Source: Xestospongia bergquistia
Taxonomy: Eukaryota; Porifera; Demospongiae; Haplosclerida; Petrosiidae
Assembly: GCA_963965975.1 (NCBI GenBank)
Contig: OZ014411.1
Span: 26,026,249 to 26,090,248, forward strand
Direction: 5' to 3'
Length of the DNA: 64,000 nt
Shown in pieces: positions 6,001 through 12,000 of the stretch (its first letter is position 1; the number at the start of each line of letters is the position of its first letter). The position numbers and the translations under genes were made by a program. The notes beneath the pieces were generated by a model that made no database searches, had not been told where the DNA came from, and was given only the letters and a program-made list of their open reading frames with translations.

Positions 6001-9000
6001 CTATATTTTTAGCAACAAGAGCAATGTCAGCATTGCCAAGAATACCATTATTATCTGCATCCAGTAGGTCAAAACGCATTTTCATTCTCTGAATCCAGCC
6101 AGGACTGTTAGTAAAGGAAGTAGTCATCCTGACTTGTGTCTGGAAGACTCTCAGCAGGTTAGAAGAAGAAACAAGTGTTAAAAGTCGTTTTTCCATTGCA
6201 TCTCAAAGCTACAACTAATCTGATAGAAGCCAAAAGAAGTCAATTAGATTCATAATTACATGTAACATAATGTAAAGGAAGTAGTCATCCTGACTTGTGT
6301 CTGGAAGATCCTTAGCAGAGTAGATGAAGAAACAAGAGTTAAAAGTCGTCTCTCCATTGAATGTTAAACCAACAATTAATCTAATAGAAGCTATAAAAGT
6401 CAATTATGCTCATAGTTCAGATGTGCAATAATCAGTCTACTAAATAAAATGATACATGAGCTAGACAAAAAGGAAGATCTAGTTAACAAATATTATCGAC
6501 ATAGCTATAAAAACTGTCAGTCGAGGATGGTGGTGATGTCTATTTACACTTACAGAGCAGTGTGTCAAGTCTTGTTTACCATAGTTTCATCAATACAATG
6601 TGGTGATTTATCCACAAAGCCAAACTGTCGCAAATTTATATTTAATCAAATTAAGAAGCCACAAAGTAATCTTTGTAGTTTATTGTCCCATGAACACGAG
6701 ACAAATACTATTTCAGCAAGGTGTCTGTCACTAATCATTACTTACATACTATACATACTATGCATACCATACTACAACTTAGTTTATCACAACAGAATGG
6801 CTGTTAAAACGGTATTCCCATCTCTGTATGCAGCTGTACTACATAGACACATTTGAATGTTTTTGACCACTACATACCAGTGATACCATTGCATATGTGT
6901 AACAGTGATCACGATATACTACTGTATATGTGTAACAGTGATCACAATATACTACTGTATATGTGTAACAGTGATCACAATATACTACTGTATATGTGCA
7001 ACAGTGATTACAATATACTACTGTATATGTGTAACAGTGATTACAATATACTACTGTATATGTGTAACAGTGATCACAATATACTACTGTATATGTGTAA
7101 CAGTGATCACAATATACTACTGTATATGTGTAACAGTGATTACGATATACTACTGTATATGTGTAACAGTGATCACAATATACTACTATATATGTGTAAC
7201 AGTGATTACAATATACTACTGTATATGTGTAACAGTGATTACAATATACTACTGTATATGTGCAACAGTGATTACAATATATTACTGTATATGTGTAACA
7301 GTGATCACAATATACTACTGTATATGTGTAACAGTGATTACAATATACTACTGTATATGTGTAACAGTGATTACAATATACTACTGTATATGTGTAACAG
7401 TGATTACGATATATTATTGTATATGTGCAAGTCGTAACTGTGATCACGATATACTGTATTGTATATTTGTAACTATGATCACGATATACTATTGTATATT
7501 TGTAACTGTGAAGCTGTGATCATAATATACTACTGTATATGTGTAACAGTGATTACGATATATTATTGTATATGTGCAAGTCGTAACTGTGATCACGGTA
7601 TACTGTATTGTATATTTGTAACTATGATCACGATATACTATTGTATATTTGTAACTGTGAATCTGTGATCATAATATACTACTGTATATGTGTAACAGTG
7701 ATTACGATATATTATTGTATATGTGTAAGTCGTAACTGTGATCACGATATACTGTATTGTATATTTGTAACTATGATCACGATATACTATTGTATATTTG
7801 TAACTGTGAATCTGTGATCATAATATACTACTGTATATGTGTAACAGTAATTACGATATATTATTGTATATGTGTAAGTCGTAACTGTGATCACGATATA
7901 CTGTATTGTATATTTGTAACTATGATCACGATATACTATTGTATATTTGTAACTGTGAATCTGTGATCACAATATACTACTGTATATGTGTAACAGTGAT
8001 TACATTTATTATCCCGCCCCGTGATTTACCTCCATCTCACCCTATCATCTTTGAAGATATCACCGCAAACCTAATTCGGGCCGTAGCACTACAAACGGAA
8101 GGTGCTGCTGGACCATCTGGAATCGACGCCAGAGGCTGGAAACGTATGTGCACTTCCTTTAAATCTGCGTCGGTCAACCTCTGCAATTCTTTGGCCTTGG
8201 TGGCCAAAAGATTGTGTTCTGAATATGTTGATCCACAAGGAATCGCAGCTCTATTGGCTTGCCGACTAATCGCCCTTGATAAAAGACCTGGTGTCAGACC
8301 AATTGGTGTGTGTGAGACTGCCAGACGCATCATTGCCAAGGCAATACTGAAGATCATAAAAGTCGACATACAAAACACGGCAGGCTCAATCCAACTTTGT
8401 GCAGGACAAATTGGGGGTGCGGAGGCTGCAATTCACGCGGTGAGGGAACTGTTTCAATCAGATGAAACAGAAGCTGTGTTGTTGGTCGATGCCCAAAATG
8501 CCTTTAACTCACTCAATAGACAATTGGCTCTTCGCAATGTACCCTCTCTTTGTCCCTTATTGGCTCCAATCTTAATCAACACATACCGTGATCCAGCAAA
8601 CCTCTACATTGACAACTCTGTACTCCTTTCTCAGGAAGGGACAACTCAAGGAGACCCACTTGCTATGCCAATGTACGCTGTCGCAATACTACCTCTGATC
8701 AAGCAACTAACTACAGCTGTGAAACAAGCTTGGTATGCTGATGATGCAACTGCAATTGGTACCCTGGAATCTCTCCGAAGATGGTGGGATGAGTTAGTGT
8801 CATTGGGTCCGGCCTTTGGCTATTTTGTGAATCCTGCGAAGACCTGGCTGGTGACTAGAGACACCCACCAATCCCCAGCAACTTCCATCTTTCGGAACAC
8901 TGGGGTTAACATTACCGTTGAAGGAAAACCACATTTAGGAGGTGCCCTTGGCTCCACTCAGTTCATTGAGACCTTCGTACTCCAGAAAGTCCATATTTGG

Positions 9001-12000
9001 AAACAGGAGCTAAACCAGCTTGTTGTCTGTGCCTCAACTCAACCTCACGCAGCTTTTGCTGCATTTACTCATGGATTAACTAGCAAATGGTTATATACAA
9101 TGAGAACCATCCCAAATATTAGCCACTTGCTCCAACCATTGGAGGACATTATAAGACAAAAACTTATTCCAGCCCTTACAGGCTTACCTCCACCTAACAA
9201 TAAAGAAAGGGACCTATTGTCTCTTCCTACCCGTTTGGGAGGCATGGGCCTACTCAATCCCACTTCAATTTCCCAACAAGAATATAATTCCTCCCAGGAA
9301 GTGACTGCTCCACTTGTCAAGTGTCTTGTAAACCAGCTCCCCGAATATACTACCGAAATCTCCTTACAGCAGCATCTGAGAAAGAGAGACATCCACAGGA
9401 GGAAACGGCAAATCGCAACTAATGCCGCTGCAGACCTGCGAGCAAATCTCCCCCCACACCTCAAGTTTGCAATGGATCTTGCACAGGAAAAAGGTGCATC
9501 AAGCTGGCTAAATGCAGTCCCTATAAAGGAATACGGGTTTCTACTCCACAAAGGGGCCTTCAGAGATGCTATCGCTTTAAGATATGGGAGGCTTCCTCAA
9601 CACCTTCCCGCCAGCTGTCCATGTGGCAAGCCTTTCTCGGTGGAACATGCCCTATCCTGCCCAAAAGGTGGCTTCCCAATCCTGCGTCATAATGAAATTC
9701 GGGACTTGACAGCTAATTTACTATCAGAGGTGTGCCATAATGTTTCCACCGAACCACACCTACAACCCGTTACCGGAGAGTCGTTAACTTTTGCTACTTC
9801 CAACGCACAGGACGGCGCCAGATTGGACATAGCTGCAAATGGTTTTTGGGGTGGTCGGTTTGAGAGGACATTTTTTGATGTGAAGGTGTTTAACCCTTTC
9901 GCCCCCTCAAACCGACACACCAACCCCTCGGCAAGCTATCGATCACACGAAAACGCAAAGAAGAGAAAGTATGAACAACGTATTCGAGAGATTGAACACT
10001 CCTCATTTACACCGCTGGTAATGTCATTGACAGGGGGACTAGGACGGGAGGCTAATGTGGCATATAAGCACCTCGCCTCCCTTCTGGCAGAGAGACGGAA
10101 TCAACCTTACAGCAGCACAATGGGCTGGCTTAGATGTTCCCTTTCGTTTGCCCTCCTTCGGTCATCCATCCTCTGTATCAGGGGCTCTCGATCCTCTACT
10201 GGTCGTGTCATTCAAGAACCTCCTCCTATGGACCTGGTCTCTTCTGAGGCCCAGTTGTCCACGGTGGAAATTTAATTATTGTTTAAACACATCATATCAT
10301 ATAAGTATCTATAATATGTACTTCTATTATTTATTTATTTATTTATTATAGTATACATGTATATTACTAGCATAATATGCTGTGTTATTGTATATAGTGC
10401 AATTACGAAACATAATATTACCAGGAGAAAAAAAAAAAACTGTATATGTGTAACAGTGATCACAATATACTACTGTATATGTGTAACAGTGATTACGATA
10501 TACTACTGTATATGTGTAACAGTGATCACAATATACTACTATATATGTGTAACAGTGATTACAATATACTACTGTATATGTGTAACAGTGATTACAATAT
10601 ACTACTGTATATGTGCAACAGTGATTACAATATATTACTGTATATGTGTAACAGTGATCACAATATACTACTGTATATGTGTAACAGTGATTACAATATA
10701 CTACTGTATATGTGTAACAGTGATTACAATATACTACTGTATATGTGTAACAGTGATTACGATATATTATTGTATATGTGCAAGTCGTAACTGTGATCAC
10801 GATATACTGTATTGTATATTTGTAACTATGATCACGATATACTATTGTATATTTGTAACTGTGAATCTGTGATCATAATATACTACTGTATATGTGTAAC
10901 AGTGATTACGATATATTATTGTATATGTGCAAGTCGTAACTGTGATCACGGTATACTGTATTGTATATTTGTAACTATGATCACGATATACTATTGTATA
11001 TTTGTAACTGTGAATCTGTGATCATAATATACTACTGTATATGTGTAACAGTGATTACGATATATTATTGTATATGTGTAAGTCGTAACTGTGATCACGA
11101 TATACTGTATTGTATATTTGTAACTATGATCACGATATACTATTGTATATTTGTAACTGTGAATCTGTGATCATAATATACTACTGTATATGTGTAACAG
11201 TAATTACGATATATTATTGTATATGTGTAAGTCGTAACTGTGATCACGATATACTGTATTGTATATTTGTAACTATGATCACGATATACTATTGTATATT
11301 TGTAACTGTGAATCTGTGATCATAATATACTACTGTATATGTGTAACAGTAATTACGATATATTATTGTATATGTGTAAGTCGTAACTGTGATCACGATA
11401 TACTGTATTGTATATTTGTAACTATGATCACGATATACTATTGTATATTTGTAACTGTGAATCTGTGATCATAATATACTACTGTATATGTGTAACAGTG
11501 ATTACGATATATTATTGTATATGTGCAAGTCGTAACTGTGATCACGATATACTGTATTGTATATTTGTAACTATGATCATGATATACTATTGTATATTTG
11601 TAACTGTGAATCTGTGATCACAATATACTACTGTATATGTGTAACAGTGATTACATTTATGGACATAACTGCTAAGCATTTTAATAGCTTGTGGGCAGTA
11701 ACCTCTTAATTAGGTGCACTTTAAATAGATAAAATTTAAGAGAATTCAAGAAAATGGCCAAGCAACCTTGTGAAGACATCCTGCTACACGAAAACAGCAG
11801 CTAACTCTTGTCAATAGACCCACGAATTTCTTTAAACGTTTCTCAACGTACATAACTTCTTCTAATTTATTTTAAATTTTTCTCACTAATGCTGATTGTA
11901 ATAATATTCATTGCTCCATCACGTACTTAACATCACTTATGCTAAGTGAGCGATTTTCCTTATACAAAATAATCCCCGACTGTGTTTTGACAATAGTTAG

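What the first reader, a model, noticed from the sequence alone, without database searches (positions are those of the whole stretch)
7087..11660. LINE insertion flanked by a giant (0.9-1.2 kb) duplication of a minisatellite
Seen: the sequence 7087-8009 (CTGTATATG... to GTGATTACATTTAT) recurs at 10440-11660 directly after the LINE poly(A), with the same order of variant 33-bp units and the same terminal ATTTAT beyond the array. The copies differ in length by exactly two 149-bp units. Established: target-primed reverse transcription normally gives target duplications of a few to a few tens of bp. Inference: either nicks about 0.9 kb apart produced an exceptional target-site duplication followed by a two-unit copy-number change, or the array was duplicated by repair during insertion. 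The minisatellite may be a preferred target of this RLE-type LINE.
Basis: partly seen in the sequence, partly recalled or inferred. Interest (0 to 1): 0.72.

Follow-up and report, generated by a model that had tools for sequence, protein, structure and literature searches.

The report
LINE insertion with kilobase-long flanking duplication
A 5'-truncated LINE retrotransposon sits exactly between two nearly identical 0.9 and 1.2 kb copies of one minisatellite segment, most simply because the insertion itself duplicated the segment, a rare outcome with a few laboratory and tumour precedents.

Summary
Observation confirmed. Window 7087-8009 (L, 923 bp) and 10440-11660 (R, 1221 bp) align with one mismatch and one 298-bp (2 x 149) gap. 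R's first 331 bp fit the left array without mismatch in one register; the next best has 13 mismatches. Unit patterns suggest that L lost two units, so about 1.2 kb was duplicated. Correction: TTTAT at 8005-8009 is also LINE sequence, so part of the shared 'ATTTAT' is junction microhomology, not independent proof.

Best explanation: the insertion duplicated the segment. First-strand priming was in an internal 33-bp unit; the cDNA's 5' end was joined by TTTAT microhomology at the array's right edge about 1.2 kb downstream (giant target-site duplication, or capture by a sister-chromatid break). This is not the family's habit: of seven other copies judged, three have 13-15 bp direct repeats, two look blunt, one shows none, one abuts a perfect 265-bp inverted duplication. 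A 1228-bp LINE target-site duplication is on record (PMC2666801).

Main rival: an ordinary 30-bp duplication at the array edge, after which unequal exchange or gene conversion carried the array across the LINE. Other alleles are needed to exclude it. Unusual, but of a known kind.

The parts
6893..8004 (.). Left minisatellite array: 33-bp units, then 149-bp composite units
   Evidence: Tandem Repeats Finder rows; unit listing
7087..8009 (.). Left copy L of the duplicated segment (923 bp); four 149-bp units; probably lost two units
7980..8009 (.). 30-bp sequence (one array unit plus TTTAT), identical to 11631-11660; the short target duplication that the rival model needs
   Evidence: Identity checked
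8005..8009 (+). TTTAT microhomology shared by the array's right edge and the LINE at its 5' truncation point
   Evidence: L015 and the C8 copy continue the LINE upstream of this point
8005..10439 (+). 5'-truncated LINE with an open reading frame through the reverse transcriptase to the C terminus
   Evidence: Listed open frame 7906-10275, whose first part is array sequence; RVT_1 E 1.2e-09; family copies
10371..10427 (+). 57-bp tail next to the poly(A), not matched in the 8 other 3'-end copies of the LINE; resembles repeats at C11 (95% and 91%)
10428..10439 (+). Poly(A) tail, 12 A
10440..11660 (.). Right copy R of the duplicated segment (1221 bp), six 149-bp units, probably the ancestral length
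12068..12666 (.). Further, diverged arrays of related 33-bp and 32-bp units, about 400 bp downstream
   Evidence: 70% match

Best explanation
Insertion-coupled duplication. Shown: the LINE, with poly(A) and a 5' truncation, lies exactly at the junction of a direct repeat whose copies are identical except for one base and a two-unit length change. Inferred: reverse transcription was primed at a nick in an internal 33-bp unit (CTA|CTG). The 5' end of the cDNA was then joined, through 5 bp of microhomology (TTTAT), to a break at the array's right edge about 1.2 kb downstream, either on the same duplex with fill-in (a giant target-site duplication) or on the sister chromatid. The left copy later lost two 149-bp units; one substitution separates the copies.
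For: LINE at the exact junction of the direct repeat. One register only, 0 versus 13 mismatches over 331 bp. L/R exact matches of 426 and 456 bp against 120 bp within the left array. Terminal-unit variants show that L reaches the array edge. LINE/target microhomology TTTAT. Another copy of the family, at C12, has its 5' end exactly at the outer end of a perfect 265-bp inverted duplication, a possible second insertion-coupled rearrangement. Precedents, read as passages: one 1228-bp target-site duplication among 25 ZfL2-2 insertions in wild-type DT40 cells (PMC2666801); a 22.6-Mb tandem duplication ascribed to one L1 event, with a sister-chromatid model (PMC7058536).
Against: Of 7 other family copies judged, none shows a long direct duplication within the flank held (about 1.4-1.5 kb a side, more at C8): direct repeats of 15, 13 and 14 bp, two apparently blunt, none visible at C7, an inverted duplication at C12. 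The target is a minisatellite, where exchange can copy segments after insertion. One end of the duplication lies within 5 bp of the array edge, a coincidence that both models need. The C12 palindrome could be independent of the LINE or an assembly error.
Confidence: 0.6

Rival explanations
1. Ordinary insertion, then array exchange. The LINE inserted at the array's right edge with a 30-bp target duplication (7980-8009 = 11631-11660). The lone unit left on its right then recombined, by unequal crossing-over with an empty homologue or by gene conversion, with an internal unit of the array and gained the 1.2-kb segment. L and R would then be two alleles of one array.
For: The 30-bp sequence is identical at both places. 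One unequal crossover with an empty homologue would give this structure, and the L/R length difference would be allelic variation (inference). The array does turn over: R4 and R5 are identical, L and R differ by two units.
Against: Needs a target duplication twice the largest measured in the family (15 bp), plus an exchange between a lone unit and one internal unit that share a perfect run of only 21 bp (sequences printed). No comparably long off-register copy is seen within the left array (longest exact self-repeat 120 bp).
Confidence: 0.27
2. Assembly chimera of a LINE-bearing and an empty haplotype.
For: L and R differ as two alleles might (1 substitution, 298 bp); no raw reads were available.
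Against: The join would have to fall exactly at the poly(A)/unit boundary through about 21 bp of overlap; the sequence lies inside a 28-Mb contig.
Confidence: 0.07
3. The segment was already tandemly duplicated and the LINE later inserted exactly at the junction of the two copies.
For: Minisatellites do duplicate segments (general knowledge); apparently blunt insertions occur in this family.
Against: The LINE would have to hit one position in an array of more than 2 kb, and its own TTTAT would have to match the bases beyond the array edge by chance (about 0.0017 per position).
Confidence: 0.04

Closest known systems
ZfL2-2 LINE insertion with a 1228-bp target-site duplication in DT40 cells (PMC2666801; passages read)
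   Same: Target duplication of almost the same length beside a LINE; rare among otherwise short alterations (1 of 25 in wild-type cells)
   Different: Cell-culture assay of another LINE; nothing in the passages read says that the target was a tandem repeat
R9 element of bdelloid rotifers, 126-bp target-site duplication (passage and reference title in PMC6895275; original paper not read)
   Same: Quoted there as an element with distant cleavages
   Different: Ten times shorter; cited as the stagger of R9 insertions, whereas here siblings show 0-15 bp
L1-mediated tandem duplication in a tumour (PMC7058536; passages read)
   Same: A retrotransposon at the boundary of a direct duplication; model of cDNA pairing with a downstream break on the sister chromatid
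   Different: Megabase scale, somatic, human L1
HERO-clade and microsatellite-targeting RLE LINEs (passages in PMC4640811)
   Same: Some insert into simple repeats, as the C12 copy adjoins (CTA)n
   Different: Clade not tested; no common target sequence was evident among the insertion sites printed

Membership tests
[quoted passage not shown]
   RVT_1, E 1.2e-09, 38.6 bits against Pfam's cut-off of 29.6
[quoted passage not shown]
   9 copies of the 3' end at 95% identity or more, the window's included; 5' ends differ. Of the 8 others, 6 have a plain A run at the 3' junction, C14's is interrupted and C12:5805242 has none
Restriction-like-endonuclease (RLE) LINE | C-terminal zinc knuckle and PD-(D/E)xK-type endonuclease | tested here: inconclusive
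   CPC..H..C and [15 protein letters not shown] are in the window protein; the relatives in alignment A1 that cover them are similar. Reading them as RLE is recalled; no Pfam or PDB match and no usable structure model
Target-site duplication | Near-identical direct repeat bounding the insertion on both sides | tested here: met
   1 mismatch plus one 298-bp gap
Target-site duplication | Empty site carries a single copy | not testable with these tools
   One assembly is held; near-identical matches were listed at this locus only, with 65-69% matches at C14 and C10
LINE with a long fixed stagger, R9-like | Sibling insertions share the long duplication | tested here: not met
   0 of 7 other copies judged

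The most novel reading that the evidence does not exclude
In tandem-repeat DNA this LINE's cDNA end tends to be captured by a distant or sister-chromatid break, so that insertion itself makes kilobase direct (C1) or shorter inverted (C12) duplications and spreads minisatellites. At about 1.2 kb it would be the longest target duplication of an RLE-type LINE that I know of (from memory and the searches).
Probability: 0.25. Interest if true: 0.55.

Novelty: new member of a known kind. Interest (0 to 1): 0.38.

Why it matters
If the duplication was made at insertion, it is a natural, presumably germline example of LINE-coupled segment duplication, whose precedents found here come from cell culture and tumours, and it would show that LINE insertion can seed a second minisatellite array. 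If it was made afterwards, it shows an array spreading across an inserted element. One empty or LINE-bearing allele would decide.

Tried and rejected
Long stagger as a trait of the family: rejected, 0 of 7 other copies judged. C8 first looked like a second long duplication (828 bp upstream against 797 bp downstream), but the two align at 87% without gap columns (BLAST pieces lower or shorter), while the LINE copies are about 95-99% alike. Its junction CCTCCCA|GAAATGG also occurs uninterrupted at two places of the same array, so I read it as a blunt insertion. C7: the start of the 3' flank has an 86% match about 2 kb upstream over 73 bp and 82% and 78% matches elsewhere on C7, and a later part a 92% match 35 kb away; local repeats, too diverged for a recent duplication. 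C2: two paralogous empty sites show a blunt insertion, within about 2 bp. Specificity for this 33-bp minisatellite: not supported. Weak tandem-repeat preference: 2 of 7 other copies (C8; C12 on its 3' side) against 1.2-3.0% coverage, P 0.003-0.017, post hoc and few. Of the 8 other 3'-end copies, C12:5805242 was left out of the target-site count because its 3' end is embedded in the palindrome; L012 and L014 (partly masked) and L015 (no 3' end listed) were not used either. The structure prediction was too poor to use (mean pLDDT 37.5), so no fold search was made. PDB sequence searches gave 0 hits; Rfam 0 hits in 6000-13000. Paper searches. Searches found nothing; the two papers were not opened. 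Four papers were opened, as passages only.

Full report
What is there. The window is 64 kb of a 28-Mb contig of an unnamed 146-Mb genome in 21 contigs; I take it for an invertebrate animal (inference, not tested). A 33-bp minisatellite (from 6893) passes into 149-bp composite units and ends at 8004/8009, where a LINE begins. The LINE ends in 12 A at 10428-10439, and at 10440 an array starts again and runs to 11660, where other DNA (GGACATAAC) begins.

Checking the repeat. L (7087-8009) and R (10440-11660) align with one mismatch and one 298-bp gap, which can be placed after any of 41 positions. R's first 331 bp match the left array with 0 mismatches at 7087; the next best register has 13 mismatches. 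Exact L/R matches of 426 and 456 bp exceed the longest exact self-repeat of the left array (120 bp) and of R (297 bp, around the R4/R5 pair). So this is one segment twice, not general array similarity.

Where it ends and what was lost. The last 80 bp of L and R are identical. The last five, TTTAT, are ambiguous: L015 and the C8 copy continue the LINE upstream of this point and read AGCAAGAC-TTTATTATCCC. They are therefore microhomology at the 5' junction, about 0.0017 per position by chance. That L nevertheless reaches the array's edge is shown by the terminal unit's variants at 7970 and 8004, shared with the end of R. L's fourth 149-bp unit has the front of R4/R5 and the tail of R6 (1, 1 and 3 differences). 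A deletion of two units in L is simpler than a gain in R, so the duplicated segment was probably 1221 bp (inference).

The LINE. The window copy is 5'-truncated with an open frame through the reverse transcriptase (RVT_1) to the stop that ends at 10275; the listed frame 7906-10275 starts in array sequence. One search listed 34 matches to its 3' part (a lower bound by the tool's own statement); 9 of them, the window's included, are members of the family at 95% or more, the rest are diverged relatives or short matches to the tail. The C-terminal motifs look like an RLE LINE (recalled); Pfam gave no family for that part, PDB sequence searches gave none, and the AlphaFold model was unusable.

Do sibling insertions have long duplications? 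Seven other copies could be judged. C1:27532516 has a clean 14-bp direct repeat. C1:8595140 has 13 bp with one mismatch, 2 bp from the LINE's 5' end. C14:2001054 has 15 bp of A+T, 3 bp from the LINE's start and a few bases beyond its A-rich tail, so the least certain. C2:13188266 is blunt within about 2 bp against two paralogous empty sites. C8:3333748 looks blunt within a 140-bp minisatellite. C7:2616172 shows none convincing within 1.5 kb, only local diverged repeats further off. C12:5807842 adjoins (CTA)n, has a 36-A tail, and its 5' end lies exactly at the outer end of a perfect 265-bp inverted duplication; its longest exact direct match across the element is 99 bp, little more than within the array (90 bp). 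The eighth copy (C12:5805242) was not judged. The long direct duplication is thus peculiar, among these, to the window locus.

Mechanism. In target-primed reverse transcription the sequence between first-strand nick and a downstream 5' joining site is duplicated (model in PMC2666801, passages). Here this would be about 1.2 kb. LINE cleavages generally give 10-20 bp, R9 126 bp (PMC6895275, passages). ZfL2-2 gave 24 of 25 short alterations and one duplication of 1228 bp in wild-type DT40 cells (PMC2666801). L1 cDNA that pairs with a downstream break on the sister chromatid is the model for a 22.6-Mb tandem duplication (PMC7058536, passages). One event of this kind explains the locus.

The strongest rival. 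The 30 bp before the LINE (7980-8009) equal the last 30 bp of R. An ordinary 30-bp duplication at the array edge, followed by one unequal crossover with an empty homologue (or gene conversion) between the lone right-hand unit and the unit at 7087, gives the same structure and makes the L/R differences allelic. It costs a target duplication twice the family's measured maximum and an exchange over a perfect run of only 21 bp; I give it 0.27. The sequence alone cannot decide.

Target preference. Two of 7 other insertion points lie at tandem arrays (C8 on both sides, C12 on the 3' side) against 1.2% (14 loci, some overlapping) or 3.0% (rest of the window) coverage by Tandem Repeats Finder, P 0.003-0.017. 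The arrays are unrelated in sequence, the sample is small and the test was post hoc. This is at most a weak leaning to tandem repeats, as passages on some HERO families describe (PMC4640811), not specificity for this minisatellite.

Verdict. The event is rare rather than new in kind.

Noticed in passing
10371-10427: The 57 bp before the poly(A) are not matched in the 8 other 3'-end copies and resemble repeats at C11 (95% and 91%), whose opposite strand can be read as a beta-helix-like protein (my reading, not searched); possible 3' transduction. Other copies also have differing 3' tails; those of C7 and C12 are alike.
   Followed up: partly
G000:C12:5805699-5806718 (L025): Perfect 265-bp inverted arms around (CTA)n/(TAG)n; the right arm ends exactly at the 5' junction of another copy of this LINE with a 36-A tail.
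   Followed up: partly
4019-4576 and 5639-6196 (minus strand): Tandem pair of 185-aa EF-hand proteins left of the array.
   Followed up: no
12068-12666: Diverged arrays related to the 33-bp minisatellite, about 400 bp right of R, so the repeat occurs more than once here.
   Followed up: no
G000:C12:5792792-5802038 (L014, L012): Two LINE copies in inverted orientation with the same 200 bp of 5' flank, about 6 kb apart, parts reading N: a possible inverted duplication.
   Followed up: no
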